Source: Homalodisca vitripennis (lineage: Eukaryota > Arthropoda > Insecta > Hemiptera > Cicadellidae). Taken from it: DNA of 64,000 nt. Made by a program: the position numbers and the translations under genes. Below are positions 5,881 to 47,639 of the stretch, one piece after another. The notes under the pieces were generated by a model, which did not search any database, was not told the origin of the DNA, and saw only the letters and a list, made by a program, of their open reading frames with translations. Where the stretch lies: assembly GCF_021130785.1 (NCBI RefSeq), contig NC_060214.1, positions 47,925,001 through 47,989,000 on the forward strand. The letters run 5' to 3'. Each line of letters opens with the position of its first letter. Position 1 is the first letter of the stretch.

Positions 5881-6942
5881 TTAAACTTTTGCTGTAGCCA
5901 GTATAGGTTTAATTGTAAGGTTTAAATCAGACAGATATGAACCTATCTAAGAAATCATTGCCGTTAGTGTATATGATGAAAGTATTGAGAGTGTTACAAT
6001 ATTTTCAGATAATATTTATCGATTTTTAATTTACATTTTAGAAATTAAAACTAGACACTTGAATCTGAATAAAATACCATTGTTGAATAAATAAATTAGA
6101 TAAAAATAAAAGTTGAGACAGAAATCCAGTAGTTTAAAATCACAAATTAAAGAGATGCTGCTTCTATATAAACACTGTATAAGGGAGAGAAAAGGCGAGT
6201 TTGTACACAGAGAGACACATACTGTTTACTAATGCAAGACAATTCCTGTTCCACATTGTCTTCCAGGCTTTTGTTTTTCAACGTATTTATTTACAGAACA
6301 AAAATTAAAAATATTCTTCGTATTTAGAATATCTAGATAAACATATAATATAGCAATATCTCAATTAGGTAACGTAATATTAAAATTGTATAACAATGTT
6401 CTACAAATTATTGTGTATACAACAGATTACAGTTTTATATCACAATATGAAGACTCGTTAAATATTCAGTTTAATTATCTAATATTTTCATATAATATCA
6501 GAATATTCATATATTACCTATCTAGTACGCTTAACGTACATGTAAAATTATAATATATTGTATTTGAGAATATAAAAACACAGAATACCTTCTGGGGTTG
6601 GAAATAAAAGGGAGAAATACATGGGATTTGACTTGATCAGTAATAAATATCCCTCGTAAAAATAATTCGAAAAATTTTGTCATGCTAATAACAGTTCACA
6701 TTTATTAAATGATTATTTAATCTAAAAGAAATCAGATTCGGCCACATTAATAAAATAGTTACTCCTTGCTCATTATGTTTTAGTATATTCTGCATTCAAA
6801 ATATAACAGAAGGTGCTGCTTTACACACGTATGTTAAATATATAAACTGTCACAAACTCCCACTAAAGAATCAAGAACTCTAAAAATAATTCTAAAATTC
6901 AAACAATATGATTCCGTACAAAGTTTTTATTGTTTTCAACTC
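5881..6942. other. AT-rich stretch without genes
   Basis: Nothing coding is visible. It ends at the LTR retrotransposon insertion site, and its last four bases (ACTC, 6939-6942) are the left target-site duplication. Confidence 0.5.
6939..6942. repeat. Target-site duplication, left copy (ACTC)
   Basis: ACTC immediately precedes the TG of the left LTR and is repeated at 18191-18194 immediately after the CA of the right LTR. Four bases is a usual integrase stagger for Gypsy-type elements. Confidence 0.75.
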
Positions 6943-7383
6943 TGTAACGTTACTTTTTAGTAGGGTGCAAAACTTCAACCGTTTTGTAGCCTACGCGGAT
7001 AGTTGCAGTTAGCTGGGTATTTCCCAGGGGTCTGGAGAGTTGCGTATTTCGGATATAAAGTGTTGACTCAGAAAGCAAGTAGGTCTCAAAAGATCTGTTA
7101 AAGTGGTTAGAACCACAAGCTCATCATCGCCAACACTTTAAGGGGCAAAGAACCGACTTGATTTTAAAATTACGTATACGGAAACAGAAACATGGTATAC
7201 AAGTAACCAACCCACGCTCAATTGGTATTCCGTCACTGCGGGACAACCTAAGCTTACCCCACGAGAATTCAGTACAATCGGGTTATAAATCGCTAAATAA
7301 AATGATCGTAATAAGATGTGCAATCATTTAAGGCTATGTCTATATATTTATCTTAATAGCGACCGCTCGTATATCCCGCTTAT

Positions 7384-8645
7384 GACAGCAGATCAGAAAT
7401 TTAGGGAAACCTAAATTTATTTCAGACAAGACCGATTTTCACAGCAGTCCGAGAGCCTAATAATAAACGAAAATTTTATTTAATCGGAAAACAGTTTAAT
7501 TTAATCGCGTTTAATCGTTATGAAACGCTTGTGACAGCAGATCGTAAATTTAGGGAAATCTAAATTTATTTTAGACGGGACCGATTTTCACAGCAGTCCG
7601 AGAGCCTAATAATAAACGGAAATTTTATTTAATCGAAAAACAATTTAATTTAATTGCGTTTTAATCGTTATGACCCGCTTGTGACAGCAGATCGTAAATT
7701 TAGGGAAACCTAGATTTATTTTAGACAGGACCGATTTTCACAGCAGTCCGAGAGCCTGACAATAAACGAAAGTTTTATTTAATCGAAAAAAACAATTTAA
7801 TTTAATCGCGTTTAATCGTTATGACCCGCTTGTGACAGCAGATCGGAAAATTTAGGGAAACCTAAATTTATTTTAGACAGGACCGATTTTCACAGCAGTC
7901 CGAGAGCCTAATAATAAACGAAAGTTTTATTTAATCGAAAAACAATTTAATTTAATCGCGTTTAACCGTTACGACCCGCTTGTGACAGCAGATCGGAAAA
8001 TTTAGGGAAACCTAGATTTATTTTAGACAGGACCGATTTTCACAGCAGTCCGAGAGCCTAATAATAAACGAAAGTTTTATTTAATCGAAAAAAAACGATT
8101 TAATTTAATCGCGTTTAATCGTTATGACCCGCTTGTGACAGCAGATCGGAAATTTAGGGAAACCTAAATTTATTTTAGACAGGACCGATTTTCACAGCGG
8201 TCCGAGAGCCTAATAATAAACGAAAGTTTTATTTAATCGAAAAACAATTTAATTTAATCGCGTTTAACCGTTACGACCCGCTTGTGACAGCAGATCGGAA
8301 ATTTAGGGAAACCTAGATTTATTTTAGACAGGACCGATTTTCACAGCAGTCCGAGAGCCTAATAATAAACGAAAACTTTATTTAATCGAAAAACAATTTA
8401 ATTTAATCGCGTTTAATCGTTATGACCCGCTTGTGACAGCAGATCGGAAATTTAGGGAAACCTAAATTTATTTTAGACAGGACCGATTTTCACAGCAGTC
8501 CGAGAGCCTAATAATAAACGAAAGTTTTATTTAATCGAAAAACAATTTAATTTAATCGCGTTTAACCGTTACGACCCGCTTGTGACAGCAGATCGGAAAT
8601 TTAGGGAAACCTAGATTTATTTTAGACAGGACCGATTTTCACGTA
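7384..8645 (-). repeat. Tandem repeat array inside the 3' LTR, about 9 units of ~150 bp
   Basis: The landmark GACAGCAGATC recurs at 7384, 7533, 7683, 7834, 7984, 8137, 8286, 8435 and 8584, giving periods of 149-153 bp. Each unit holds an inverted repeat, AAATTTAGG-GAAA-CCTAAATTT, one arm of which is altered in some units, followed by a landmark reading CACAGCAGTCCGAGAGCCT. From about the third unit on, two variants alternate: one with CCTAAATTT and AACCGTTACG, the other with CCTAGATTT and AATCGTTATG. The array therefore grew by copying ~300-bp dimers. In the sense (minus) direction each unit carries two AATAAA hexamers. Confidence 0.9.
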
Positions 8646-8869
8646 CAAATTCAATGAAAATATGCATGAAAATTCTTGCACATGCAGAGTGAAAAACGTG
8701 CAAAGAAAATTTACGTTAAATATTGCAAGCCAAGCTAAGCAAAACAAACAGAAATTTACTACAACTATTGCACCATGAATAATGAAATAACTAATCGAAC
8801 TCGGAATAATAGTTACCTGTCAAATGAAATTGAAGTTTGTCTGAAAATGTCCTCTGCTCGCTGTACTGT

Positions 8870-9045
8870 CCTTCACCTCGATAATCACGCTTCTCCGTAT
8901 CGAACCCCTCTCGCCGGCCCTCGCCAGTCCCTTTATCAGTCGACTACCGCGCTCTAGGTGGCGGGCAGCTACAATCTTTAACAGCGCCCCCCGCGGATTC
9001 TACGGCAATCTCGTCCGCGACGGTAGCGCGCCGTGCGAGTTTTAC
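8870..9045 (-). promoter_or_regulatory. CpG-rich U3 segment of the LTR, possible promoter (3' copy)
   Basis: A sharply G+C- and CpG-rich patch in an otherwise AT-rich LTR. In the element's sense it lies roughly 120-290 nt from the start of the LTR, where U3 promoter sequence would be expected. The transcription start cannot be placed from sequence alone. The same patch is at 17902-18070 in the 5' LTR. Confidence 0.3.
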
Positions 9046-9162
9046 TACAGCCAGGACATTAAAACTATCTTCTCGCTTCCACTTGATACAATTTAATGTA
9101 AAACAATATAGTATTTCACTGTTCTGACCAAAAAAAAACACTTCAAAATTTGGGACCTTACA

Positions 9163-9171
9163 CCCCCCACT
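9163..9171 (-). other. Polypurine-like tract before the 3' LTR
   Basis: On the minus strand AGTGGGGGG abuts the first TG of the 3' LTR. This is the position of the plus-strand primer. The tract is short and contains one T, so it is an atypical but plausible polypurine tract. Confidence 0.6.
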
Positions 9172-9431
9172 TAGTTCGGTCAAAAAAAAAAGAAACGGGA
9201 AAAAAGAAAAAGAACTCTGTTTTACTCAAAATGAACTTTCTTTTTACTTTAATAACATAAATAAAACTTCTAAAACTAAAATAAGTATTCCTTCAGCTCC
9301 AAATTTAAACTTATTTCCTATAGTATGTTTTTGTCAACCTTGACAAATAACAAAAACAAAAGGTAACTAAAAATTTTTCTTGCTTCTTCACAATCAGAAA
9401 AACTTTATACGGATGCCTTCATCGCATCCTT
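9172..9431 (-). other. 3' untranslated region of the retrotransposon
   Basis: About 260 bp of A/T-rich sequence, including long A and T runs, between the Ulp1-like stop codon and the purine tract. No reading frame is visible. Confidence 0.5.
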
Positions 9432-10733
9432 TTAATGTAGGTACTTTACGTTTACCCTCTTGAACTTCCCATCTTCGGAATATATTCTTATTCTCTTCGG
9501 GTGTCTCTTTTTCCTTTTACATTTTTCGGTCGCCTTTGTATTGCGTGTTTCACCGTCGTATTCTCCTCGCGGTGTTCCACTCTGTTTCAGGGACGAAGTC
9601 TCGGCTTCCATTTCAATACTCTCCCTCGGTTCGATATCTTTCACCGTATCGTCTCCTCGTTCTTCGCACAGTCTTTCATCAATCACTTCCCAAGAGTCCG
9701 AAGCCGCGATTGATAGACATGGAGAAACCGGCCTATCGGACTCGACTTTCATTTCTCTTTCATGGTCATCCGTCCGTTGGTTCCCTGGCTCCACGTCTAG
9801 GTCCCTTACTGCCTCGTCGATAAGGGCAATGAGGTCATCCGTTGCTGCGGAATCTTCCTCCACGTCGACCTCCATCGGGGCCGGGTGAGACGGTCCAGGT
9901 CGATAAAGAGGGCCGAACAGATCAACGTGCCGCATGGATGGATATCCGAGTTCGGCCGCTCGAAGCAGATCCTCCAGTACTGGATCATTTACTGACCCAC
10001 TCGCTTCTCCCTGGAGTGAGGTCGCTGTTTCTTTTGGGGAGAGGCTAGTTTGTCCTCGAACCGTAGGAAACATATCCGCTATATCGCCCGGCTCGGTGTA
10101 ACGAAAGTCCTCGACGCCAACACGCCCCGCTCGGAGAACCGAAGCGATGTTCTTCCGGATCGATTTTCCACTCGCTTTTTTTCCTTCTAATCGTGCCTTC
10201 CTTGACAGCACCTCCGCATACATACACACGAAGGCGCCGCAATCGTACGAGTTCTCTTGTCGAGGGATATTCTTGGGTGCGTCTACCGTTTTCCATGCCT
10301 CTACCTTCCGGTTCCTTCTCGTGGCCTCGTATGTCAGGAAATCTCGCACTGTCCCTCTCTCCGCTTCGTTATTCCATCCGCAAGAGTCGTACGCGGTGAT
10401 TGTATTTTCTTCGACCATCACCACGATTAAGATCCAGTGTCCCCTGCTACCACGGTCTGGGAGGTGTACGGGAACGAATAACATATCGTTTTGAAAGATA
10501 TCTTCTTTCTTAAACCGGTTATTGACCGCCTGGTATCTTTTCTCCTTCCAGTCCTTGAAGAAGAACGTATCGAACATATAGATCGATGGAAGACACACTT
10601 TGTGGTACCAATTCCGTCTCTCTATAATTCGCAAGTAGGCCTCAATGACGACGTCGTTCATCAATGTGTCTTTCGCCGCTAAAACATCGATTTCGGTTTG
10701 GTTAACCGTGATTAGTTTTCTCAGACCCTTCAT
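9432..10733 (-). CDS. Ulp1/SENP-type (C48) cysteine peptidase encoded by the retrotransposon
   Basis: An intact 433-codon ORF in env position. Residues 1-225 form a Ulp1-like peptidase domain: the N-terminal L-x-N-D-x-x-I motif (TLMNDVVIEAYL, 23-34), then FVPVHLPD, the catalytic His in GHW (H99), the catalytic Asp in AYDSCG (D116), and IPRQENSYDCGAFVCMY with the oxyanion Gln (Q159) and nucleophile Cys (C165). The spacings H-D 17, D-C 49 and Q-C 6 equal those I recall for yeast Ulp1. Family members cleave SUMO or related ubiquitin-like tails through an isopeptide or peptide bond. Residues 226-400 are acidic and look disordered, with a SUMO-interaction-like core DDLIALID (299-306). A basic cluster KCKRKKRHPKRIR (404-416) could be a nuclear signal. 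The base composition is clearly richer in G+C than the flanking DNA. The ATG lies 95 bp past the integrase stop, in another frame. Peptidase class is well supported; substrate and role are not shown. Confidence 0.92.
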   Translation of the reverse strand: MKGLRKLITVNQTEIDVLAAKDTLMNDVVIEAYLRIIERRNWYHKVCLPSIYMFDTFFFKDWKEKRYQAVNNRFKKEDIFQNDMLFVPVHLPDRGSRGHWILIVVMVEENTITAYDSCGWNNEAERGTVRDFLTYEATRRNRKVEAWKTVDAPKNIPRQENSYDCGAFVCMYAEVLSRKARLEGKKASGKSIRKNIASVLRAGRVGVEDFRYTEPGDIADMFPTVRGQTSLSPKETATSLQGEASGSVNDPVLEDLLRAAELGYPSMRHVDLFGPLYRPGPSHPAPMEVDVEEDSAATDDLIALIDEAVRDLDVEPGNQRTDDHEREMKVESDRPVSPCLSIAASDSWEVIDERLCEERGDDTVKDIEPRESIEMEAETSSLKQSGTPRGEYDGETRNTKATEKCKRKKRHPKRIRIYSEDGKFKRVNVKYLH

Positions 10734-10752
10734 TCTTAACCACAGGTATTAC

Positions 10753-10775
10753 CTGAAAGCCACACAAAACAAGCA
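10753..10775 (-). promoter_or_regulatory. Candidate splice acceptor before the Ulp1-like ORF
   Basis: On the minus strand the sequence TTGTTTTGTGTGGCTTTCAG ends at 10753, a pyrimidine-rich stretch closing in CAG, 20 nt before the ATG at 10733. A donor-like GTAAGAG lies in the gag leader at 15891-15897. Together they would remove gag-pol and place the Ulp1-like ORF first on a subgenomic RNA, as for env in errantiviruses. This is prediction only. Confidence 0.4.
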
Positions 10776-10828
10776 TCATGCAAAGCAGTTTACTAACCAG
10801 CTAGCCAGTACCTTCACCACCAGTAGCA

Positions 10829-12391
10829 TTAACGAATGAACGTTTTTAAGTCTTTTACGTGGGCATTACTATTTTTACCCGTGACCTCATCGGTTATACG
10901 GTATATGTTATAACCTACTTTAGAATCGATTTTAAAGGGTCCTATGTACTTTGGAGCTAATTTTGCGGCAAAAGCGTTAGCGGCTGAAGAAAGAGCGTGA
11001 TTTCTTTTTAGGACTCTATCGCCCACGTTATACGTTACTTCTCGTCGTCTTAAATTATATACCCTTGCTTGATTGTTATAAGCTGCCCTTAGGTTCAGAT
11101 GACATCTCTCGTATAAACGTTGAAATCGATCATACCTTTCCTTATGGATATCGGCTGTTGAGAGGGGTCGTTTATCATTCCCTTCTTCGAAAAACCCGTA
11201 TAGGGATTTCGGTGGCTTCAGCTCTCTGCCAAAGTTAAGCATAGCGGGAGTGAACTTTGTACTGCCATGTACCGCTGTATTCATCGCGTATCTGAACTCT
11301 GAAATGTTCACGTCCCACTCTCGATGGTCATTCTTAACGTATTGGGCAATCATCGTTCCCAGCACGCGGTTATATCTCTCTACCGGGTTCGACTGAGGTG
11401 AAAATGGAGCAGTATAATTGACCTCGATTCCCCAATCCTCAGCTAGTTCCTTAAAAATCTTCGACGTGAATTGTGTTCCGTTGTCTACTATAAGTACCTC
11501 AGGTGATCCGTACCTAAGTAATATCAATTCCTTAAATTGATTGCATACTTGGCGAGCGTTGGCAAGTCTTATGGGTGCTATTTCTACCCATTTGCTAAAA
11601 CAGTCTTGGAAAACCACCGCATAAGTGTTACCTCTTTTTGATCTAGGTAACGGCCCAATCAAATCCGCCGAAACTGCGAACCAAGGCCCCTTTGGTCGTC
11701 TAAATTTCATTATTCCGGCGGGTTTCTTTTGTTCGCTCTTGAATTTCTGGCACGTCTCACATGAAGCGACATAATTTCGGACTTCTTGCCGCCATCTCGG
11801 CCAGTAGTATCTTTCTGCAATTCGTTTGGCTGTCTTTCGATAGCCGAAGTGCCCAGCCGTTTCCTTATCATGAGTTTCCTCAAGTACTCGATTTTTCTCC
11901 TCCTCGGGAACACACATCTTCCAATCCAAACTCTTCTGACGCCCCTCTCCTGGGCCTCTGTAGGGAATATATCTGTATAGTTTTCCTCCTCTTATGGTAA
12001 ACCGAGGGAAACTACGGGGATTTTTCTTAACTTTGTGTATTAGGTTATCATACCATGACATTGGGAGATAGTCGCCGCAATTTGAATTACTTTCCTTCTC
12101 TGAGCTTTCTATTACAAACACCTTCAGAGAATGATCTCTAACTTCGTCGTTTTCGGTTGTTTGATCAGTCCTTTCAGGAGGGTTTCTCGAAAGAGCATCG
12201 GCTACTCTATTTAAAGCACCTTTACGGTACTGGACTGAAAAATCGTGTTGCTGCAACTCGAGGATCCAGCGGGCCAACCGACCGGTTGGTTGTTGTATCT
12301 TCATTAACCATTGCAGTGCTTGGTGATCGGTGATTGCGAGGAAATGGTACCCTTCGATATAAGGTCTAAATTTTTTTACCGCCCATACCAA
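10829..12391 (-). CDS. pol: Pol: RNase H C-terminus and integrase
   Basis: 520 codons read without interruption. The first 70 residues are the end of RNase H (TDHQALQWL at 21-29 and NRVADALSR at 61-69). The integrase zinc finger has H174, H181, C211 and C214. The catalytic triad is D243 (SADLIGP), D303 (VDNGTQF) and E338 (NPVERYNR), with 34 residues between the last two. A GPY/F-type motif (KYIGPFKI) near the C-terminus is typical of Ty3/Gypsy integrases. No chromodomain is seen. All catalytic residues are present, so the protein could be active. It joins the preceding RT-RNase H part across a frame change at an A/T run at 12398-12401. Confidence 0.95.
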   Translation of the reverse strand: MVWAVKKFRPYIEGYHFLAITDHQALQWLMKIQQPTGRLARWILELQQHDFSVQYRKGALNRVADALSRNPPERTDQTTENDEVRDHSLKVFVIESSEKESNSNCGDYLPMSWYDNLIHKVKKNPRSFPRFTIRGGKLYRYIPYRGPGEGRQKSLDWKMCVPEEEKNRVLEETHDKETAGHFGYRKTAKRIAERYYWPRWRQEVRNYVASCETCQKFKSEQKKPAGIMKFRRPKGPWFAVSADLIGPLPRSKRGNTYAVVFQDCFSKWVEIAPIRLANARQVCNQFKELILLRYGSPEVLIVDNGTQFTSKIFKELAEDWGIEVNYTAPFSPQSNPVERYNRVLGTMIAQYVKNDHREWDVNISEFRYAMNTAVHGSTKFTPAMLNFGRELKPPKSLYGFFEEGNDKRPLSTADIHKERYDRFQRLYERCHLNLRAAYNNQARVYNLRRREVTYNVGDRVLKRNHALSSAANAFAAKLAPKYIGPFKIDSKVGYNIYRITDEVTGKNSNAHVKDLKTFIR

Positions 12392-13588
12392 AGCTAAAAC
12401 ACTCTTGTTCAGTGACCGTAAACTTCTTTTCCCCGTCCGTTAACAGTCTACTGGCATACGCTATAACCACCTCTTTACCCTTTCGCTTCTGGCTCAAGGT
12501 GGCGCCTAACCCTATTTGAGACGCATCTACCTGTAGGACAAATTGTTCGCTGAAGTCTGGGCATGCTAGAATAGGGGTGTTTGTTAGGCGGCGTTTCAGT
12601 TCGACGAAAGCCTCTTCATGAGTCGCTGTCCAATCCCACTTAACCGCTTTTCTCAGCAGTTTAGTAAGTGGCGCCGTCAGAGTCGCGAAACCTGATATGA
12701 ATCGGCGATACCAACTCGCAAGACCCAAGAAGCTTCGGAGGTTTCTTATATTCCTCGGCGTTGGAAAGTCTAAGATAGCGGACACCTTATCTGGATCTGT
12801 GGATATTCCTTGATCGTTTATAACGTGTCCCAAATATTTTAAGCGTGTCTGGCAAAACTTGCACTTCTCCGGGTTTAAGCTTTAGGCCAGCTCGTCGAAG
12901 ACGTTGAAATACTTCTCTCAGAGATTCTAAATGTTCCTTGAAATTCGATGAAATAATAATCAAGTCATCTAGATAGGCGAAAGCTTTGGGTTCCAATTCC
13001 GGGCCTATTATGGTATCGAGAAGTCGTTGAAACGTTGCTCCCGCTGAGTGCAAACCAAACGGCATCCTCGTAAATTGGTAGAGTCCTTTTCCTGGTACTG
13101 TAAAAGCGGTTATGGCGCGACTTTCCTTCGATAAAACCCACCTGCCAATACCCTGATTTTAAGTCGAGCGTGGAAATAAATTTGGCTTCCTTGAGTTTTT
13201 CTAGGATAGAGTTGATTTGAGGTAGGGGATAAGCATCTTTCTCGGTTTTTGCATTTACCTTTCGGAAGTCCACACAAAACCTAAATTTTCCGGAAGGTTT
13301 CTTGACTAATACAACTGGAGAACTCCAGGGACTATTCGATTTCTCGATTATCCCGTCCGCCAACATTGAATCAACTTCATCGTTGATCACTTTCTGCATT
13401 GCGGGGTTACGTGGATAAAATCTCTGTTTAATCGGTTCGTCGTTCTTTAATTTAATCACATGTTCTACTATGTGGGTAAGACCAGGGGAATCCTTAAACT
13501 CCGCTAATTCGTTTTCCAAAAACTCTCTAAGCTCCTCTTCTTCCTCCTCGCTTAGCGTGACGATAGCATTTATAGCTGTCCCCCTCAC
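12366..13588 (-). CDS. pol: Pol: reverse transcriptase and RNase H, frame broken
   Basis: Three frames in succession carry the reverse transcriptase and RNase H of a Ty3/Gypsy element. The first (13588-12965) has the fingers, VVLVKKPSGKFRFCVDFRKVN and LDLKSGYWQV. The second (13065-12787) opens with MPFGLHSAGATFQRLLD and has the catalytic box FAYLDDLI. The third (12833-12366) has GHVINDQGI, the connection FLGLASWYRRFI and the RNase H start FVLQVDASQIGLGATL. Frame changes map near the C-run at 13137-13139, near 12868-12882 and at the A-run 12398-12401, all homopolymers or short runs. As given the sequence does not encode one protein. Given the near-identical LTRs these may be base-calling errors, but real inactivation cannot be excluded. 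Confidence 0.9.
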
Positions 13589-14099
13589 AGTTATTTACGC
13601 CGTACTCTTCTCTGGAAATAGTTTTCTTTTTAAAGTCAATTAGTTTTAATGGCGCTATTACGTCCATGCCTAAAATAATCGGAGAAGTAAGACCTGAGAC
13701 GTTAATCAACTTAAACGCGTGTTGTATGTTTTCGATACTTCCTTCAAATTCGATCCCTCTCCTCGCTTCGGTTTTTGTCCCATCGGCCATTTGAATCTGA
13801 AGTTTTTCAGTCGTAATCCGCGCTCCTTTACTCATTAGCATATCATACGTTGTATCGTTTACAAGGGAGATCATTGCCCCCGTGTCGACCAGGGCCCATA
13901 CTAACATCCCACAGAACAATACGGGTACGTACGGTCTTATGTCTTTATTCCGAACTTCGGCTGGACAGGTTTTGGTGAATTCGGCTATATATTTTACCCA
14001 CTGCTGCCATTCAGCGGAGGTTCTTAAATTCGTTTGCGGGGCTCCAGGTGACCTCCTTTCGCCTGAGCCCTCACTCCGTTTCCCAAGTTGCATTTGCAA
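13527..14099 (-). CDS. pro: Retroviral-type aspartic protease
   Basis: A 190-codon frame overlapping the end of gag by about 75 bp and in a different frame from it. The catalytic motif is WALVDTGAMISLV (D-T-G), and the C-terminal flap/helix block IILGMDVI follows about 75 residues later. This is the Gag-Pol processing protease, which acts as a homodimer. The last ~30 residues (after the C-run at 13580-13584) look out of frame, and the RT frame takes over there. Whether the gag-pro junction is a programmed frameshift or an error cannot be decided here. Confidence 0.88.
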   Translation of the reverse strand: MQMQLGKRSEGSGERRSPGAPQTNLRTSAEWQQWVKYIAEFTKTCPAEVRNKDIRPYVPVLFCGMLVWALVDTGAMISLVNDTTYDMLMSKGARITTEKLQIQMADGTKTEARRGIEFEGSIENIQHAFKLINVSGLTSPIILGMDVIAPLKLIDFKKKTISREEYGVNNCEGDSYKCYRHAKRGGRRGA

Positions 14100-15866
14100 T
14101 CCGTAGTTTTAAAACCAGGGGTCTTGCAAAAGTAACATTTTAGGGTTTTCGGGAAGCGACAATTCCTAAAAATGTGACCGGGTTTCTCACAGTTCCAACA
14201 TACAAAACTAGAAGTATTCTTCGGGATAGTTGTGTTTCTCTGAGAGGCTATACTTTCTCTTCTTACAACTTTTTGTCCTTCCCTAGTATCCATTTCCGGC
14301 CTACCAGATAATTTATTCGTCCTCTCAAACACTTTATTTTCTTCGTTATTTATTGACTTCCGAGGATGTTCCCGTTGATCTCGATTAGGATGTTCATTGT
14401 GTGATCTGAGTGTATCAGCCGCTGCCTTATTGGTGACATTTGAAACACCAAACGTTTTTAAATTCTTATTTTTGGGGCTATATGCGGTTTCAGGCACCAG
14501 GGACTGAGCTGGACCTGGCGGTGGCCGATATAAGTGAGTTTCTCGGATATACATCTCGTAGTGTTCTGCCGAAGAAATGAGTTCACTAATCGTTCGTATG
14601 TCTGGCCTCTTTAAACTCAGCTTGTACTTCGGGTGCATATTTGCATATAACCTATCAAGCTTATCTACGGGCGTCATACCGCCTCTTCGTCGCATCAACG
14701 TATTCAAGGCCACTACAAACGTCCTGATGGGTTCACTGTCACCTTGTGTTCTACGTTTTATTTCATCGTCCATGTTCGTCTTATAGCCTACCGGAAGGAA
14801 GTTTAGCTCGAAATCTTGACGAAAATCTTCAAAACTGTCCCAAAACTCTCTATTATTTCGATACCACAGTAAAGCGGTACCCTTTAGCAATTCAGGGAGT
14901 GCTTTTATCAGATCGCCCCCGGATACATTATAAGCCTCCATCAGCTCATCAAGTCTTTCAAGAAAAGGACACTGGATTTCGCTCTCCGTCGAAATGTAAA
15001 TTCCACTTTCTAATTGTGTTGCATATCTCAGCGGAATTGACATGCGGCTGTCGGGAAAGGTGCTCATCTCTCAATCTTTGATTTTCGTTAGAATAGTGCG
15101 TTACATGCCGCCTAAGAGAATCGTGAGAAATCCCAGGTGCAATGTATTGACTTGTCGCCAGAGCTGGAAGTTTAAAAGCATCGGTATACACAGATCTTGT
15201 TGCGCCATCGTAAGGTGCATAACTCACATAGTCGTGTCCAGTATCCCAGTTGGACTTGGCCTTACTCCGCGTCTTCAGTGAAACTAAAAGCCTCTTTACT
15301 TCGTCGTCACTAGTATCGGGTGGAACCTCGAGTATCTCCCTCAGGTTTAACTCTCGGCTTCTTTTATCAGTCTCTGCTTCACTGGTATTCGGCCCAACTG
15401 GGTCGTTGCCAAAGGATTCTCTTCCGCCTACAGCCTCATCTCGTCTGTCCGGCTGTGAGCGAAGAAACTGTACGAAAGATTTTCTTAGATAATCTGTCGT
15501 CCTACCCTCGGTGTCCAAGTCGTGTTTTAGCATTTCAGTTATTAACTGGGCTTTCGTGAGTCTGTATATCCACCCCACGACTGGATCTAACTCAGAAGGG
15601 GAATAACTAGTCGTGGAAAACGCCTTTGTTGTTTGGTCCTTCGAAGTCAACAGTGGCAAACCCAAATCTCGTTTTTCGATACCTTTAATTTGTGATTCGC
15701 TAGTATTTTCAGAGGAACTAGTAGTCACAATCGTAGGTATTTGTTTTTGGTGTTCTGAGTCTGTTGTTGACTTTTCGGGCCTATTCGTGTTTCCACCCTT
15801 TGGTAGAACGTGCATTTGAGCGAAAAAGTATTCGCACAGTCGCCAAAACCCCGTTGGTCGAAGCAT
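14024..15866 (-). CDS. gag: Gag polyprotein, one frame break
   Basis: Two overlapping frames (15866-14958 and 15067-14024) change over at the A-run 14963-14966. The first has a region resembling a SAP motif (LTKAQLITEML then LRKSFVQFL) and a long charged linker. The second has the retrotransposon Gag capsid core (LKGTALLWYRNNREFW, FRQDFELNFLP, RRTQGDSEPIRTFV) and then two CCHC-type knuckles. Knuckle one, CWNCEKPGHIFRNC, is canonical. Knuckle two, CYFCKTPGFKTTDC, has Phe where His is expected. Gag assembles the particle and packages the RNA. The ATG at 15866 lies about 85 nt after the primer-binding site; a later start is possible. Confidence 0.88.
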
Positions 15867-15890
15867 TTTATAAACACTATCTCGCTAAAC

Positions 15891-15897
15891 CTCTTAC
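15891..15897 (-). promoter_or_regulatory. Candidate splice donor in the gag leader
   Basis: GTAAGAG on the minus strand, upstream of the gag ATG at 15866 and downstream of the primer-binding site. It is placed as retroviral major donors are and could pair with the acceptor-like site at 10753. Confidence 0.35.
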
Positions 15898-15952
15898 TAA
15901 AAGTTTATCTTTTACGTTCGAAGAATATTACACTCGTATAATCACTATACCC

Positions 15953-15970
15953 GTCCCTGTTCGGGCGCCA
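15953..15970 (-). other. Primer-binding site, tRNA-Lys
   Basis: On the minus strand, three bases after the 5' LTR, stands TGGCGCCCGAACAGGGAC. This is the 18-nt complement of the 3' end of metazoan tRNA-Lys(UUU), known as the primer of lentiviruses and several insect retroelements. The match is complete over 18 bases. Confidence 0.93.
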
Positions 15971-16414
15971 TTTTGTAACGTTACTTTTTAGTAGGGTGCA
16001 AAACTTCAACCGTTTTGTAGCCTACGCGGATAGTTGCAGTTAGCTGGGTATTTCCCAGGGGTCTGGAGAGTTGCGTATTTCGGATATAAAGTGTTGACTC
16101 AGAAAGCAAGTAGGTCTCAAAAGATCTGTTAAAGTGGTTAGAACCACAAGCTCATCATCGCCAACACTTTAAGGGGCAAAGAACCGACTTGATTTTAAAA
16201 TTACGTATACGGAAACAGAAACATGGTATACAAGTAACCAACCCACGCTCAATTGGTATTCCGTCACTGCGGGACAACCTAAGCTTACCCCACGAGAATT
16301 CAGTACAATCGGGTTATAAATCGCTAAATAAAATGATCGTAATAAGATGTGCAATCATTTAAGGCTATGTCTATATATTTATCTTAATAGCGACCGCTCG
16401 TATATCCCGCTTAT

Positions 16415-17676
16415 GACAGCAGATCAGAAATTTAGGGAAACCTAAATTTATTTCAGACAAGACCGATTTTCACAGCAGTCCGAGAGCCTAATAATAAACG
16501 AAAATTTTATTTAATCGGAAAACAGTTTAATTTAATCGCGTTTAATCGTTATGAAACGCTTGTGACAGCAGATCGTAAATTTAGGGAAATCTAAATTTAT
16601 TTTAGACGGGACCGATTTTCACAGCAGTCCGAGAGCCTAATAATAAACGGAAATTTTATTTAATCGAAAAACAATTTAATTTAATTGCGTTTAATCGTTA
16701 TGACCCGCTTGTGACAGCAGATCGTAAATTTAGGGAAACCTAGATTTATTTTAGACAGGACCGATTTTCACAGCAGTCCGAGAGCCTGACAATAAACGAA
16801 AGTTTTATTTAATCGAAAAAAAACAATTTAATTTAATCGCGTTTAATCGTTATGACCCGCTTGTGACAGCAGATCGGAAATTTAGGGAAAACCTAAATTT
16901 ATTTTAGACAGGACCGATTTTCACAGCAGTCCGAGAGCCTAATAATAAACGAAAGTTTTATTTAATCGAAAAAACAATTTAATTTAATCGCGTTTAACCG
17001 TTACGACCCGCTTGTGACAGCAGATCGGAAATTTAGGGAAACCTAGATTTATTTTAGACAGGACCGATTTTCACAGCAGTCCGAGAGCCTAATAATAAAC
17101 GAAAGTTTTATTTAATCGAAAAAAACGATTTAATTTAATCGCGTTTAATCGTTATGACCCGCTTGTGACAGCAGATCGGAAATTTAGGGAAACCTAAATT
17201 TATTTTAGACAGGACCGATTTTCACAGCGGTCCGAGAGCCTAATAATAAACGAAAGTTTTATTTAATCGAAAAACAATTTAATTTAATCGCGTTTAACCG
17301 TTACGACCCGCTTGTGACAGCAGATCGGAAATTTAGGGAAACCTAGATTTATTTTAGACAGGACCGATTTTCACAGCAGTCCGAGAGCCTAATAATAAAC
17401 GAAAACTTTATTTAATCGAAAAACAATTTAATTTAATCGCGTTTAATCGTTATGACCCGCTTGTGACAGCAGATCGGAAATTTAGGGAAACCTAAATTTA
17501 TTTTAGACAGGACCGATTTTCACAGCAGTCCGAGAGCCTAATAATAAACGAAAGTTTTATTTAATCGAAAAACAATTTAATTTAATCGCGTTTAACCGTT
17601 ACGACCCGCTTGTGACAGCAGATCGGAAATTTAGGGAAACCTAGATTTATTTTAGACAGGACCGATTTTCACGTAC
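16415..17676 (-). repeat. Tandem repeat array inside the 5' LTR
   Basis: Same position within the LTR (offset 441), same unit count and same alternation of unit variants as the array at 7384-8645. This is expected because both LTRs derive from one template during reverse transcription. Confidence 0.9.
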
Positions 17677-17901
17677 AAATTCAATGAAAATATGCATGAA
17701 AATTCTTGCACATGCAGAGTGAAAAACGTGCAAAGAAAATTTACGTTAAATATTGCAAGCCAAGCTAAGCAAAACAAACAGAAATTTACTACAACTATTG
17801 CACCATGAATAATGAAATAACTAATCGAACTCGGAATAATAGTTACCTGTCAAATGAAATTGAAGTTGTCTGAAAATGTCCTCTGCTCGCTGTACTGTCC
17901 T

Positions 17902-18070
17902 TCACCTCGATAATCACGCTTCTCCGTATCGAACCCCTCTCGCCGGCCCTCGCCAGTCCCTTTATCAGTCGACTACCGCGCTCTAGGTGGCGGCAGCTAC
18001 AATCTTTAACAGCGCCCCCCGCGGATTCTACGGCAATCTCGTCCGCGACGGTAGCGCGCCGTGCGAGTTT
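17902..18070 (-). promoter_or_regulatory. CpG-rich U3 segment of the LTR, possible promoter (5' copy)
   Basis: Counterpart of 8870-9045, here in the LTR that would drive the element. The promoter role is inferred from position and composition only. Confidence 0.3.
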
Positions 18071-18190
18071 TACTACAGCCAGGACATTAAAACTATCTTC
18101 TCGCTTCCACTTGATACAATTTAATGTAAAACAATATAGTATTTCACTGTTCTGACCAAAAAAAAACACTTCAAAATTTGGGACCTTACA

Positions 18191-21100
18191 ACTCCATACC
18201 TCGAATAAAGTCTTACTTGATGTATACTAAACATATTATCATCTATAAACAGTTACGAAAAATTAAAGTGAAACATTGGAATCGTTTGAGTGTGTTACTT
18301 TTATATAGCACTGAAATATGGTGTAATAACCCTCCTGCATATCACTTAAGTAGAAGTCACCATCGTGATTTTCTTAAGTGCATCGATGGAAAATGAAAAT
18401 GTTTCCTCGATCTGAAGCATCAATAATTTTGAGTATACATTACCTTTCTTCTGTCTGATGTGAAAAAAACCGTAATCGAATTTTGAAACAATTAAGTAAA
18501 CAAAAGTTAAGTAATGAGTCTTTTTTATCCACTTCGATATCAAATAGGGCATACATTAGTGGAAACAAGGTTGTAGTTAACATTCATATATTGATTAATA
18601 CTAAATGAATACCATTATAGTTGCTACGAAATAGCTGCTAAATATTCAAGTGTTTACCAGAGAGATGTTCATGTTCGAGAATAGATGTTGAGTGCAGATT
18701 GGAACTTCAAAGCACCGAGCAACAGAGCTGTGTTATCAATGATTACCCCACTGACCATTACAGACTAGTTTATTGTACTTCGCCTTATATATTTTTAGAA
18801 TATGTACTTGTTCTGGTGGAGGAAGGACCACCACAGGACCTGAATAAGTTAAATGAACTTGTTATGAACTCTTCTCACTTTTCTTACATTTTTTCCCTTC
18901 AAAAATGTAAAACTCCTTATACATGGCTTATCTCATGCTCGAAAGTGACGTCAAACGAAGTTTATATATATATATATATATATGTATATAAAGTTGTGTT
19001 ATTTTGAACACTAAGGAGTCAGCCCACAGTGCTTACACATTTTTCCAGACTTTCATCTTAAATAAGGAGTTATATTACTCCATTTATACCAATATTTTCA
19101 ATTATATAACTTTTACGTACATGATATAAAACTGAATATTTTCTTGAATTATTCCTAAAATAATAGTTTAGTTCTTAGTTTATTCATTGAAGATTAAAAA
19201 AAATAAACATTTACGTCTATTCAGTGTACTCGAAAAAATTCAAAGAACATGAAATAAATATAGGAAAAAGATTAGCGTAGACTGTTTATTAATCAAAGAA
19301 CCTAAATGATTGTAACTTGGCCTTATTACGTTTTTAGTTAATATACGTGCTAAGCTTTCAATTCAAGAAGAGTAATTTCATTTGGAAGAGTTCCATGTTT
19401 AAACTATTATTGTTTATGAGAAACGTACTAAAATGAGCGCCTTTTATGAGAATTAGTAAAAGGCTGAGTCGTAATTATATTTTGAAATTAATTGCGAAAG
19501 TTTCTCAATGACTGACATGAGTGTAGTGTTTAGGAACGATTTCGGTCTTTACAGGTTAGTTTTAATATAAGTATACGAGCCCTAGTACTTACCTGCGGCT
19601 TCTTACGCAATTTCATGCCAAATAATATGGACGTCATAGGCATCAGCTTTTTAAATCGTATACGAAACACTCGAGAGATAAAGTAATTGTGATAAAGTAA
19701 TGGCATCATTTATGCTAACGAAATCTAACCACATAAAAATAGCAAATTCCATTTTGCAAAACTTACGCTTAGCACGTTGAGTTTAGTAATGAATAATAAT
19801 CTATTTTTTACCATAATCGGATTCCGGTAGAAAACAAACGCACAGAAAAGAAGACGGAAAAGTGGGGTTTTGCTTAATTTTATAGAATAAATCAAGCTCA
19901 GTAACAAGCATTACAATTCCTATTTAAGTGAAGGCTTAAATAGTCTATTAATGTTATTTATTATCTCGAACTTCCTTGTTGATTTATGTTTATGTACGTT
20001 GACGTTCTTTCATCGTTACTCTTATGTTAGCTATTGCTATTATTGTTAATACTATTATTTTTATTATTATGTATATGATTTTCCTCGTAATACCACCAGC
20101 TATTGAATAATTCTTTCAGTTTATTAACTTTGCATATTGATTTGGTTTATTGTTGCACATGTTGGTTGGCGTGTTTGCCATATGTTATTGTTTTGTTCCT
20201 TGTTGACACTGTTGTATTGTTTGTCTATAATTTATATTGCCACCTTAATATCGTGTTCTGTAAAATGGTGAATTACCATGTATAGAAAGACTCTACATTC
20301 ATTATACAGGGTGTAAATGAAAATTACGAACGGGCTCCATAATTTCCGAACTATTAAAGGGAAATCAATAAAACTTGCAGTAATGATGTAAAGCGTTTTG
20401 TTCTTTACCTGGATTCTTTCTGGAATTATCAAGCCCATGCAATATCTTAAATTTCTTATCGTTATAAGTAAGCATTTGAACAATAAGATTTCTTCACTGA
20501 GTCATTAGGGTAAAAATACTACCTCATTCAGAATTATTGTACCCTTATATATGTTTGCAAATGTCATCTTAAGTCCCTTAAGATTACACGACTTTCCTCT
20601 TATCTTATGGCTTATGACAAAACAGTTACCATATTATTTATTGTGTAGAACAATATGACGAGATAATTACGTCTGGTAATTTAGACGGACAGACAGTTGG
20701 CGGGAATCTGAATAGTTAGTTTGTGCCAAGTCACTGAACAAAACACAGACAAGAACCAACAACTAGACTGTCACTGGATTTGCATCTGGGTTACATTATG
20801 CTGCATATATAACTTGTAACTGAATTAGCTTGAATACCAAACTATATCTTTGTCGTCTTCGACAAAATTTAAATTTATTATAATTGCTTTACTGAATTAA
20901 AAATGGATCAAACCAGGAAAATTATATTTTGCCTGACGTCAGATACAAGCTAATATAACATAAATAGGAACATAAAATACAAAAGTTAATTGTGAAACGG
21001 TTTTGTTTATCTTCGACTACAACCTAATTAAATTTTACTGAAGGGCGTTATGTTTATCTACGACACAGTTCTCCATTAACAAATTCAACTGTACTGCGCG

Positions 21101-22505: not shown

Positions 22506-25500
22506 AGCAAAGTTCAATTTTAATTCACCTTTCTTGCAAGCTTGAACCAAATGTAACTTTTATGATTCTATTAAGCTCTATTGATCATCAAGAATTAATT
22601 ATGCAGATTTCTCTGTAGTTTTTTTGAATTTAATTTTTCCTATAAAAAATACAACAAAATAAATTTAATATCAGATCTGGAAGACTATTTCAATATAACG
22701 TACAATACATTTGGTGCTTACCTCAAAATCCCTCGCGGAAAAAATTTAGAAACAAGGCGCACTGTAATCAACTTGATTCACGAAAATTACCAAAAGAACA
22801 ATCTAATTTAAAATTAAATCCCCATATGTCTTTCCCAAAATTTTCATTTAATATAAGTTTTAATGAAAACAAATAAACCAATGTAGCTTAAAAAATGCTA
22901 CATTAACGTTACAGAAGAATTATTTTAACTAATTTTTACTAAATTTACAATGATTGTTAAAAATTAAAAGTATAAGCCTCAAATTTTTAATATGTTCTCG
23001 ATTTCTGTAATAGTTCCTGTGTTCTGTTGTTTGCTTGTCTGCATTGCAGATTGCTCTGTAGTTTCTATGAATTTATTTTTTTCCTATAAAAAAAACCACA
23101 AAATTAATTTAATATCGGATCTGGAAGACTATTTCAATATAACGTACAATATATTTTGGTGCTTACTTCAAAATCCCTCGCAAAAAATATTATGTACTAA
23201 CTTGCCAAAGGATTACATATTCGTTTTTATCCTAACTTCTCACAATCTAATTTAAAATTAAATCCCTATATTTCTTTCCCAACAGTTTCATTTAATATAA
23301 GTTTTAATTAAAACAAATACAGCAATGTAGCTTTAAAAACGCTACAGTCGTGAATACATGAATACAAGAGACAATGTCGATTATAACATTATCGGGCTCA
23401 TTTCTCTTACGAGACGAGGTTCTATAAACTGATATTGAACCTTGTTTGCACACCGAAGTTAGTGACAGATTCTGTTGTGTAACAAGATTAGAAGTTCTTA
23501 ACGCTCCAATATCGAGGATAGTGTTCACCTTCTGCTAGAAACAGCGTTATTGCATGATATAACAACATTATTATGCAATATTGAAATCTAAACCATTGAA
23601 ATATTCTTTATATTTGCTTCAGATTGTCTTCTCAGCAAATTAACAAGGAAACACATTGTAAAATATACCGCATTTTGTTCTAAAATATCAAAATAAATAA
23701 TATTTATTTTTTTTATGATTAGGACACAGTAGAATTTCGGACATTTTTAATCGTTATATGGTAGAACCATATATCTTACTCAGAAACGCAATATTTTTGT
23801 ATGAAATTGTTATGTTCTTGAATAAATGAAATTATTTCAATGACTCCTCATGGTATTAGAAGCATTTCGAGTGGGCAATTTAGTCTATTTTGTAATCAAA
23901 CCAAAATACATTCCTGAAGATAACAACGACAGAGTTTCACAGTAAGTACATGATAGTTTACAGGTTTGCATGTCATGAGTTAAATTATATTTTGAATTAA
24001 ATATAATCTATAAAATGATATATTTAATTTTTTTCTTAAACTAATGTATTTTTGTGAATAAAAAACAAGTCAATCGCTGAAACTATAGCTTATGTATGTA
24101 CAGAAAGATTTCTGTAATTCTTATCTTCAGTTGTTATTTAGACCTGATTATTACAAAACGACCCGAATTTTCTATTTGTGATGCCTGTAATTTCACCGTC
24201 AACAAATGTGTTTACACTCTCTGTATGCAGGGCAGTTATCTTAAGGAGGTAAGAAATTAAAGTACAGAAAAATTTTTTAAATCCAGAATCGATTACACCA
24301 AATAACAATTTGAAAGATGTTTACAGTGTCGTAAAGCTGTCACGAATAAAATATTTATGAAGCTCTCAATTGATAATAATTTAGATTCAACCGATTGTGA
24401 GAGAGACATGCTACTGGTTTGTGTAATAAAACAAATACAACATTACATAATAATAGATATACGAACAAAAGTAGTACCGAATATATTTTATACGTTATGG
24501 CTTTAATACGTCAGTATCGTTCAAAATCATTATTGAAATATGAAAACTTGTATAAGTAGGTCAACATAATAAAACTTTAAAAGATAATCACTTTATTGTA
24601 ACATATATACTGACTTAAGAAACATGAAAATCTGTATTAAAAAGGAAAATACCTTTATGTTGCCAGCAACAGTTAAATTTAGTAATAAGGTTAAAAAAGT
24701 AACAGTATATTGCTGTCTTTGGACGAAATTAAGCAGCCACAGAAAAGAATATAATATTAATTTGGTCGAGTTATGGAGATAATGAGATCCTTGTTCATTA
24801 TCGATTGTGAAGTTAAAGATTTGTCTTCCTTAAATGAAAAAGGTCGTTTTGTAATTTATCGAAGAAAGATTATTTGTCCTGAATAAATATTACGTCGGAT
24901 TAAATTCCTTTTGGTAAATGCTAAAGTATTGTTTCTGTCTCATTTCAAACGCCATCATTTTGCAATATTTTACAAAGTGTTTGTAGGACAATATTAAATT
25001 CTTGATGCAGTATCTTTCTTGAGCTTCCGATCATTTTAATTGAAATATAGGTTATTTATATATCATTAGAACAATTGACGCATCAAAAATTGTGACATGC
25101 ATTATCACAGTATGTTATGATATTGTTGGGTAAGTGTTAGCGAAGTAAATTGAAGGTAAATGAGGGGCTAACAAATTTAATTACAGTATATCTGTGATTC
25201 TGAATATTTTGAAAATAAACAAAGAGTTGACAGTTTGTATGAAACTTCATATCTAAATTAGCAACACCAAATTCAATGATGGTACCTGTCACGCCATGGG
25301 ATTTGGCTGCTGAACGTTGGTGATTACTTTTTGAATATTCTTATGGATAACCACGATGGCAATGGTAAAATAGGGTAAGTAAACTTACAAAAAAAATTTG
25401 TAGCTCATATTAGATTTTAACAAGTGGTACTTTTATTCATAGAATAAAAAGAAATACGATAGTTTGGAGTCTCTTCAAGTCTCTTTTAAGAAATATAATC

Positions 25501-28500: not shown

Positions 28501-28744
28501 CTAAATTTTTTCCGCGAGGGATTTTGAGGTAAGCACCAAATGTATTGTACGTTATATTGAAATAGTCTTCCAGATCTGATATTAAATTTATTTTGTTGTA
28601 TTTTTTATAGGAAAAATTAAATTCAAAAAAACTACAGAGAAATCTGCATAATTAATTCTTGATGATCAATAGAGCATAATAGAATCATAAAAGTTACATT
28701 TGGTTCAAGCTTGCAAGAAAGGTGAATTAAAATTGAACTTTGCT
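22506..28744. repeat. 6.2-kb near-perfect palindrome (inverted repeat)
   Basis: Left arm 22506-25528 (3023 bp) and right arm 25723-28744 (3022 bp) are reverse complements over their whole length. A 194-bp spacer (25529-25722) separates them. I noticed scattered single-base differences between arms (for example in the 23454/27798 and 24985/26272 regions) and a few one-base indels, so identity is high but not complete. No protein-coding potential was recognised. The short frame MNTILDIGALRTSN occurs in both arms and is not a known family. No clear target duplication or transposon terminus was found at the outer ends. Confidence 0.95.
22606..23300 (+). repeat. Partial tandem duplication within the palindrome arm, offset ~442 bp
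   Basis: The block starting GCAGATT...CTCTGTAGTTT at 22606 recurs at about 23048. Shared landmarks are CTGGAAGACTATTTCAATAT, CTTCAAAATCCCTCGC (one copy reads CCTCAAAA) and a terminal segment with AATGTAGCTT. The two copies are clearly diverged, more than the arms are from each other, so the duplication predates the inversion. The mirror image is in the right arm (about 27950-28645). Confidence 0.75.
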
Positions 28745-34469: not shown

Positions 34470-34695
34470 GCGCTGATGGTCGAGCGGTCTAAGACGTTGG
34501 ACTTTGGTTCTAGTTAGAGATAGCGCAGGTTCAAATTCTGTCTGTGACCGTATCACCTTTTATCAGTATAATCGACCTTGCACTGTATCAACTCTCCCCT
34601 TACTCTTTTTGATAAGATCTTCGCACAGGCCCATAAGCAGGGCAGAATAAGACTTAAAATGTTTTCGGCATCTTCTTTAATAAAATTCATGGTGA
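34470..34695 (+). mobile_element. tRNA-derived SINE, copy 1
   Basis: The head resembles a class II tRNA (Leu/Ser type). It has an A box TGGTCGAGCGG (34478-34488), a long variable region and a B box GGTTCAAATTC (34528-34538). A body shared with 52573-52800 follows (TTTTATCAGTA, GATAAGATCTTCGCACAGGCC, AGAATAAGACTTAAAA). Two diverged copies with the same body show a SINE family, not a tRNA gene. RNA polymerase III would transcribe such elements and a LINE would mobilise them. Confidence 0.8.
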
Positions 34696-44210: not shown

Positions 44211-44295
44211 TTAATATGCTAATTCTTTGTTGAAGGTTATTTTTGACGATGGAAGGATTGTGAAGAAACAGGATTTTTCCGGACATTTGCCATCG

Positions 44296-44520
44296 TTAAG
44301 TGAAACAAGAAAACAGTAACACTACGTTTCGAGATCTGCAATCTGATCTCTTCTTCAGGTAAAGAACTAACCTAATACATAATTACAAACTAGGTTAAAA
44401 TAAACAAATCTTACTAAAGCGTAGTGGCACGCCTGAGTCAGGAATCACAACCTACATGTTGTATGTCAACTTCACTAACACTAAAGACATGCACTTAATA
44501 AAAAAAAAAACTATACAAAC
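44296..44520 (-). repeat. Penelope terminal repeat, copy 1
   Basis: Matches 47250-47470 directly and about 49063-49292 in inverted orientation. In the element's sense it holds CCTGAAGAAGAGATC, a loop and GATCTCGAAACGTAGTGTT, a hammerhead-like core with a perfect 6-bp stem. Hammerhead motifs are known from terminal repeats of Penelope-like elements. Confidence 0.8.
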
Positions 44521-44689
44521 ACCAATCATTAAACTAAACTACGGAATACAGGTCACAATGTGTCTTCACTCGTCTACTAACCATTTACGACTGACCAGAG
44601 GGGGTAGCCAATGGTAATCGTGACGGTCGGCTAAAACAAGATGGCGGAAAATTCAAGGGAAGGGGAACAGGAAATGGGCCCTTTCGTTA

Positions 44690-47075: not shown

Positions 47076-47249
47076 GAAAGTTAAATGATTAATGTGTTTT
47101 AGTTAATTTAAGATGCAAGCTCTCAAGGTCTTTGATTTGTTTACTGGTTCCGGGTCCGTACCGAGAATCAATTCTTTGTTTGAAGGTTATTTTTGACGAT
47201 GGAAGGATTGTGAAGGAAACAGGATTTTTTCCGGACATTTTGCCATCGT

Positions 47250-47470: not shown

Positions 47471-47639
47471 CACCAATCATTAACCTAAACTACGGAATAC
47501 AGGTCACAATGTGTCTTCACTCGTCTACTAACCATTTACGACTGACCAGGAGGGGGTAGCCAATGGTAATCGTGACGGTCGGGCTAAAACAAGATGGCGG
47601 AAATTCAAGGGAAGGGGAACAGGAATGGGCCCTTTCGTT

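What the first reader, a model, noticed from the sequence alone, without database searches (positions are those of the whole stretch)
9432..10733. Ty3/Gypsy retrotransposon with a complete Ulp1-type SUMO-protease-like ORF in env position
Seen: an unbroken 433-codon ORF inside a bounded LTR element, between integrase and the purine tract, with H99, D116, Q159 and C165 in the motifs GHW, AYDSCG and RQENSYDCGAFVC. The spacings H-D 17, D-C 49 and Q-C 6 are those I recall for yeast Ulp1. Known: Ulp1-like genes have been captured by some DNA transposons (for example plant Mutator-like elements), and Polintons use the related adenoviral-type protease. I do not recall a described Ty3/Gypsy lineage with one in env position. 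This ORF is intact while neighbouring gag-pol frames are broken.
Basis: partly seen in the sequence, partly recalled or inferred. Interest (0 to 1): 0.92.

Follow-up and report, generated by a model that had tools for sequence, protein, structure and literature searches.

The report
Retrotransposon lineage carrying SUMO-type protease
In a leafhopper genome a diverse group of jumping genes (Ty3/Gypsy retrotransposons) carries, where an envelope gene would sit, an intact gene for a SUMO-protease-like enzyme, which they may use against the host's silencing of jumping genes.

Summary
The ORF at 10733-9432 (minus strand, 433 codons) is a Peptidase_C48 domain (E 3.7e-25; best solved match SENP1) inside a complete LTR element (6943-18190), between integrase and purine tract. 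It is not a passenger. In the window's own genome, 27 of 27 distinct family-A copies examined have integrase upstream and 26 of 27 have LTR downstream. Five further families, 23-37% identical pairwise in the protease domain, show the same integrase-Ulp1 order and keep H, D, Q and C. One diverged pair of family-D copies gives dN/dS 0.20 in the catalytic part; recent copies look neutral. The broken gag-pol frames are probably assembly indels: the LTRs differ by nine one-base gaps and no substitution. No membrane segment. I read it as an accessory SENP-type protease kept by a whole lineage, most likely nuclear and aimed at host SUMO-dependent silencing; the target is inferred, and all six families lack a tryptophan present in SENP1. 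Eight literature searches listed no LTR element with Ulp1; DNA transposons and non-LTR elements with it are known.

The parts
9432..10733 (-). Ulp1/SENP-type ORF (ORF3), 433 aa
10143..10664 (-). Peptidase_C48 catalytic domain, residues 24-197; codons H99 10437-10439, D116 10386-10388, Q159 10257-10259, C165 10239-10241
9435..10112 (-). C-terminal module (residues 208-433): acidic linker (208-398, pI 4.2) and basic tail (399-433, pI 10.6)
   Evidence: motifs shared with families C and D
15974..18190 (-). 5' LTR, 2217 bp, with a 149-bp tandem array at 16406-17672
6943..9162 (-). 3' LTR, 2220 bp, with a 149-bp tandem array at 7375-8642
6939..6942 (.). target-site duplication ACTC, left
18191..18194 (.). 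target-site duplication ACTC, right
15953..15970 (-). primer binding site, 18 nt (tRNA-Lys type, from recall); the same 18 nt occur upstream in L041 (family C) and L043 (family D)
9163..9172 (-). G-rich polypurine tract before the 3' LTR
14961..15884 (-). gag, first open piece (no Pfam match)
14027..15070 (-). gag, second open piece (Retrotrans_gag, CCHC knuckle)
13530..14108 (-). aspartic protease
12968..13594 (-). reverse transcriptase piece
12369..12881 (-). RT end / RNase H start, another frame
10829..12439 (-). RNase H end and integrase (H2C2, rve), stop at 10829-10831
10753..10774 (-). possible 3' splice site (by eye) just upstream of the Ulp1 ATG; not flagged by my scan
   Evidence: against
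17841..17849 (-). near-consensus 5' splice site (8 of 9) in the 5' LTR

Best explanation
This is an accessory third gene of a lineage of Ty3/Gypsy LTR retrotransposons. It encodes a SENP/Ulp1-type cysteine isopeptidase followed by an acidic linker and a basic, probably nuclear, tail. Shown: the element's anatomy; the C48 domain with its H-D-Q-C set; the same gene order in six families; C-terminal motifs shared by families A, C and D. Inferred: it is made as a separate protein, perhaps from a spliced message as env would be; it enters the nucleus; it removes SUMO (or a related modifier) from host silencing factors, so that the element escapes piRNA-guided transcriptional silencing, which in Drosophila involves a SUMO ligase. 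My estimates: lineage gene kept by selection 0.95; active Ubl protease 0.85; SUMO as substrate 0.65; counter-silencing as the main role 0.4 (the confidence given is for the whole chain).
For: C48 profile and SENP1 match. INT-Ulp1 order in 27 of 27 distinct A elements, in C and D and in E, G, H. H, D, Q, C kept in all six families at 23-37% pairwise identity. dN/dS 0.20 for L038/L051 (31 synonymous, 26 non-synonymous). Basic tail, no membrane segment. Su(var)2-10, a SUMO ligase and Piwi interactor, in transposon silencing (PMC7272611, passages). A Ulp1-bearing gene on plant Vandal transposons (KIU, a VANC relative) is linked with loss of silencing of related copies (PMC13317346, passages).
Against: No activity, localisation or expression data. 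The tryptophan of the SENP1 WLND motif is replaced in all six families, so the substrate may not be SUMO. Recent D copies show 4 synonymous and 21 non-synonymous changes pooled, near neutral. The splice acceptor scan did not support A and D. In flies, knock-down of host Ulp1 raised R1/R2 expression (PMC7676866, passages), so more deSUMOylation need not mean less silencing. Both structure models were poor.
Confidence: 0.4

Rival explanations
1. The protease works inside the element's own cycle: it removes SUMO from, or cleaves, Gag, integrase or reverse transcriptase, and so aids assembly, nuclear import or integration, without acting on host silencing.
For: It is coded beside gag-pol; Ginger1 fuses Ulp1 to its integrase-like transposase and its authors suggest a part in transposition or repair (PMC2836005, passages). 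In a family-D derivative the C-module is fused in frame to Gag and protease.
Against: The elements already code an aspartic protease for processing (family-D pol fusion). In that derivative the catalytic domain is gone while the C-module stays.
Confidence: 0.3
2. It acts as a broad host manipulator unrelated to silencing, such as a deneddylase or deubiquitinase protecting element proteins or changing the cell cycle.
For: The WLND tryptophan is replaced in all six families, so tail recognition may differ from SENP1. SENP8 matches weakly (E 1e-4).
Against: The order of similarity is SENP1, SENP2, SENP5, Ulp1, then SENP8.
Confidence: 0.2
3. A captured host fragment without function, carried by chance.
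For: Recent copies alone do not show selection.
Against: Six families with the catalytic set kept; dN/dS 0.20 for L038/L051; open frames where synonymous sites are saturated.
Confidence: 0.03
4. An unusual envelope gene.
For: It sits where env sits in Metaviridae (PMC7879559, whole text).
Against: Highest 19-residue hydropathy mean 0.96, one glycosylation sequon, full C48 match.
Confidence: 0.01

Closest known systems
SENP1/SENP2/Ulp1 (Peptidase C48) cellular proteases
   Same: Catalytic domain with H, D, Q, C; SENP1 is the best solved match.
   Different: Coded by a retrotransposon; the WLND tryptophan is replaced; own acidic/basic C-module.
Ginger1 DNA transposons
   Same: Gypsy-like integrase together with a Ulp1 domain (PMC2836005, passages and abstract).
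   Different: Ginger1 has TIRs, no reverse transcriptase, and Ulp1 at the end of the transposase; here LTRs, gag-pol and a separate ORF.
Utopia and NeSL non-LTR retrotransposons of nematodes
   Same: Retrotransposons with a Ulp1-like protease (PMC4640811, passages).
   Different: Non-LTR elements with the domain at the N-terminus of one protein.
Plant Mutator-like elements with Ulp1 (KIU/VANC of Vandal)
   Same: Transposon-borne Ulp1 conserved within a lineage and linked with anti-silencing (PMC13317346, passages).
   Different: DNA transposons of plants; function of the domain itself unknown.
CryptonF/CryptonS of oomycetes
   Same: C48 peptidase coded by a mobile element (PMC3212892, passages).
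   Different: Tyrosine-recombinase DNA transposons.
Bdelloid rotifer LTR elements with enzymatic ORF3 (GDSL esterase, DEDDy exonuclease)
   Same: An enzyme gene in the third-ORF place of LTR retrotransposons (PMC5408684, abstract and passages).
   Different: Other enzymes; 'Ulp' does not occur in the main text.

Membership tests
Peptidase C48 (Ulp1/SENP) | Profile match above the curated cut-off | tested here: met
   89.5 bits against 20.7; also families C, D, E, G, H
Peptidase C48 (Ulp1/SENP) | Catalytic H, D, Q, C in order | tested here: met
Peptidase C48 (Ulp1/SENP) | C48 fold | tested here: inconclusive
   models of mean pLDDT 34.9 and 49.8; no fold search run
SENP1/2-like SUMO protease | Tryptophan of the WLND motif (role in clamping the SUMO tail: recall) | tested here: not met
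   replaced in all six families; present in SENP1 and P0003
SENP1/2-like SUMO protease | Cleaves SUMO | not testable with these tools
   needs an assay
Ty3/Gypsy (Metaviridae) | LTRs, PBS and PPT bounding the internal region | tested here: met
   definition from PMC7879559
Ty3/Gypsy (Metaviridae) | gag, then PR-RT-RNase H-INT | tested here: met
   in pieces; family D in open frames
Ty3/Gypsy (Metaviridae) | Particles and reverse transcription | not testable with these tools
   needs experiment
Errantivirus-like elements with env | Env with transmembrane part after integrase | tested here: not met
   hydropathy maximum 0.96; C48 match instead
Ginger1 | TIRs, no RT, Ulp1 fused to transposase, CCGG/CCGT target site | tested here: not met
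   LTRs, RT, separate ORF, target sites ACTC and GCCT; Ginger features from PMC2836005

The most novel reading that the evidence does not exclude
Gypsy elements took up SENP-type proteases at least twice at the same place: once in the A/C/D/G/H group, once in E, whose protease groups with SENP1. They use the protease against SUMO-dependent piRNA heterochromatin, and the C-terminal module has a role of its own, kept under selection in a derivative that fuses it to Gag.
Probability: 0.2. Interest if true: 0.9.

Novelty: new variant of a known kind. Interest (0 to 1): 0.75.

Why it matters
Ulp1 domains recur in unrelated transposons, and the papers seen here call their role unknown or only suggest one. 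A lineage of LTR retrotransposons that keeps one as a separate gene, in an insect where SUMO-dependent silencing can be tested by analogy with Drosophila, makes the question testable with one purified protein and one reporter. It would also show that the env place of Metaviridae can hold an enzyme acting on protein modification.

Tried and rejected
Viral-contig scans with the ORF, an integrase alignment and a Ulp1 alignment confirmed no relative. Genome contigs gave five loci with distant Gypsy-like pol in contigs filed under bacterial bins. Protein searches for Ulp1 relatives outside H. vitripennis found only P0003, a SENP-like protein from a short ENA contig, so presence of the gene in other insects is not shown. 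Two AlphaFold models were too poor to use; no fold search was run. A SUMO-interaction-motif idea (IALI, residues 302-305) was weakened: 927 of 5000 shuffles of residues 201-433 hold such a motif. The acceptor scan did not support splice sites in A and D. A first dN/dS run over tblastn frames mixed in shifted frames in copies with indels; for A and D it was replaced by a DNA-alignment run. A count of integrase loci with and without a C48 neighbour was planned, but the genome server was busy each time, so how many related Gypsy families lack the gene is unknown. The search with the family-C protein did not complete.

Full report
Observation. The ORF lies on the minus strand, 10733 to 9432, ATG to stop, 433 aa; the plus strand in that frame is full of stops. 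H99, W100, D116, Q159 and C165 are present with spacings 17, 49 and 6. Pfam gives Peptidase_C48 at E 3.7e-25, residues 24-197. Phmmer against solved structures gives SENP1 (E 1e-24), SENP2 (5e-18), SENP5 (8e-18), yeast Ulp1 (1e-11) and SENP8 (1e-4).

Element. Self-comparison shows direct repeats 6943-9162 and 15974-18190 at 99.6%. On the minus strand the LTR begins TGTAAG and ends GTTACA; ACTC flanks both sides; AAA plus an 18-nt PBS follows the 5' LTR and a G-rich tract precedes the 3' LTR. Inside come gag, aspartic protease, RT, RNase H and integrase in Ty3/Gypsy order, then 95 bases, then the Ulp1 ORF in another frame. The ORF has a higher third-position GC (0.54) than the other pieces (0.42-0.45).

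Frame breaks. The LTRs differ by nine one-base gaps, all in runs of 3-8 equal bases, and by no substitution: the look of assembly error in a very young insertion. Of 26 other distinct family-A copies compared by DNA alignment, each differs from the window's ORF by 0-3 synonymous and 0-6 non-synonymous changes in the catalytic part and by 0-1 and 0-4 in the rest, carries 0-25 gaps, and has no stop among the aligned codons. A published H. vitripennis assembly used Nanopore and Illumina reads (PMC8496328, passages); whether this window comes from it is not known.

Host. The nearest protein is J6590_098221 of Homalodisca vitripennis (P0001; 96% in the BLAST alignment, identical over 1-168 and from about 178 of its own numbering on). 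Its model runs on into LTR sequence, and its cluster holds 11 member sequences. P0124 also joins ORF3 to LTR sequence. P0002 and P0125 are diverged relatives from the same species, a further subfamily that I did not fetch.

Copies in the own genome. The search with the ORF gave 124 matching pieces from 97 scored of 492 candidates. Seven copies, the window included, match over 1-433 without a stop, and an eighth from residue 5. The 30 loci cut out stand for 27 distinct elements (L023/L028, L024/L029 and L030/L033 are the same). 27 of 27 have integrase upstream on the same strand; 26 of 27 have LTR sequence downstream, the exception being the element of L023/L028.

Other families. C (L036, L037, L040) and D (L038, L039) each have integrase upstream of the Ulp1 ORF. 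In L038 gag (535 aa), pol (1017 aa) and Ulp1 (448 aa) are all open. Direct repeats flanking the internal region were found for L036, L037 and L038, not for L039 and L040 within the stretches held. L037 has LTRs of about 2.8 kb with no mismatch and nine gaps and a 4-bp duplication GCCT. The PBS is the same 18 nt in L041 (C) and L043 (D); in L042, upstream of L037, it has three extra bases. PF02902 over the whole genome gave 1093 candidates; 150 were scored and all 150 pass the cut-off. I fetched five of these places, chosen by me as multi-copy or long-frame types. Four (L073, L076, L074, L075) have RNase H/integrase directly upstream; L073 and L076 are 97-98% alike, so they add families E, G and H. 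The fifth (L077) shows no integrase in its 2.5 kb. LTRs of E, G and H were not examined. So at least six families share the order. 32 of the 150 rows share profile limits 2-211 with the family-H representative and are probably its copies (not aligned). Pairwise identities among the families are 23-37% in the protease domain and 39-53% in integrase.

Trees. With integrase, A, C and D fell with P0004, P0005, P0006, P0008 and P0009 in a clade of 10 of 74 rows (support 0.911; next node up 11 rows, 0.999). These P rows come from sources with no organism named. In the larger tree (76 rows; supports of inner nodes not printed) G, H and P0007 join this group, while E/F sit elsewhere; the node joining all six families holds 51 rows (0.984). 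With the protease, A, C, D, G and H separate from E, F, P0003 and SENP1 at 97/96; whether all transposon rows form one clade is unresolved (67/48), and H has a long branch. One capture with losses and two captures both stay open.

Selection. L038 against L051, the most diverged usable D copy: catalytic part 31 synonymous, 26 non-synonymous, dS 0.273, dN 0.056, ratio 0.20; C-module ratio 0.49 (one stop and five gaps in L051). L036 against L037: 4 and 2 in the catalytic part. Against: L036 against L040 3.5 and 8.5, ratio 0.70; six other D copies pooled (L039, L049, L050, L053, L054, L072) 4 and 21, as expected of neutral change after insertion; L052, with 50 catalytic codons, 1 and 6. A copies are too alike to tell. 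Between A, C and D synonymous sites are saturated (pS 0.80-0.83, pN 0.44-0.48 in the catalytic part), so the kept catalytic set and open frames carry the argument there.

C-module and derivative. The 433 residues divide into a basic protease (pI 9.5), an acidic linker (4.2) and a basic tail (10.6), with no membrane segment. A, C and D share a motif near SPCLSI...W and a C-terminal motif like P.R(I/V)R(I/L)...DG....R. Many D rows match only from about residue 208 on. In the four examined (L055-L058) gag and the first 120 residues of pol lead into Ulp1 residue 211 onward, in one open frame in L057; four rows lie in frames of 1004-1066 aa. Among 17 such copies the C-module has a median pairwise dN/dS of 0.43 over 133 pairs with dS above 0.03 (range 0.25-0.94; pairs are not independent). 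The module seems useful without the protease, in a Gag fusion.

Mechanism. Shown: a conserved protease gene of the element. Inferred: production as a separate protein. A near-consensus splice donor lies in the 5' LTR of A and of C, none was found in D; by eye an AG after a T/G-rich stretch precedes the ORF in A, C and D, but my acceptor scan flagged only C, at another site, so splicing is weakly supported. Nuclear entry is inferred from the basic tail. [quoted passage not shown] Against a simple reading, knock-down of host Ulp1 in flies raised R1/R2 expression (PMC7676866, passages). All six families replace the tryptophan of the WLND motif, so specificity must be measured.

Known work. Ulp1 or C48 domains are described in Ginger1 and Mutator-like elements (PMC2836005, passages and abstract; PMC13317346, passages), Cryptons (PMC3212892, passages), NeSL and Utopia (PMC4640811, passages). 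Enzymatic third ORFs in LTR elements are described in rotifers (PMC5408684, abstract and passages). Passages of a study of insect endogenous retroviruses gave no hit for SUMO (PMC12992720). Eight full-text searches (listings and openings of abstracts seen) showed no LTR element with Ulp1. Many subscription papers and Repbase reports lie outside that library, so an earlier description cannot be excluded.

Verdict. A real gene of a retrotransposon lineage, kept by selection on the evidence above; a new variant of a known kind (transposon-borne Ulp1), in an element class where my searches found none described.

Noticed in passing
window 22506-25535 and 25717-28744: Inverted repeat with arms of about 3.0 kb, 99% identical, 181 bases apart.
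   Followed up: no
window 44221-46112, 47170-49073, 49064-49296: Direct repeat of about 1.9 kb at 97% with a short inverted piece and an ORF at 46088-46594 (minus) that by recall looks like the start of a Penelope-type reverse transcriptase; no Pfam match.
   Followed up: partly
window 34470-34549 and 52572-52736: tRNA-Gln-like gene inside a repeat found again at 52572-52736 (84%): perhaps a tRNA-derived SINE.
   Followed up: no
window 7375-8642 and 16406-17672; LTRs of L036, L037, L038: Each LTR of the window's element holds about 8.5 copies of a 149-bp tandem unit; self-matches of the family C and D LTRs suggest tandem arrays too.
   Followed up: partly
L055-L058 and further rows: Non-autonomous family-D derivative: gag plus the start of pol joined to the Ulp1 C-module, catalytic domain, RT and integrase missing, in many copies; C-module median pairwise dN/dS 0.43.
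   Followed up: partly
L077:2-1636 (minus): C48 domain at the end of a long ORF with a cysteine-rich start (PHD-like by eye) and coiled-coil-like middle, no integrase in 2.5 kb: perhaps another kind of mobile element with Ulp1.
   Followed up: partly
L039:7708-8544 (plus): Antisense ORF that by eye looks like an endonuclease part of a non-LTR element, inserted upstream of the integrase of a family-D copy.
   Followed up: no
L001-L005: Gypsy-like pol in contigs filed under bacterial bins, probably eukaryotic contamination.
   Followed up: no
P0001, P0124: Public gene models of H. vitripennis run from this ORF into LTR sequence: transposon genes annotated as host proteins.
   Followed up: partly
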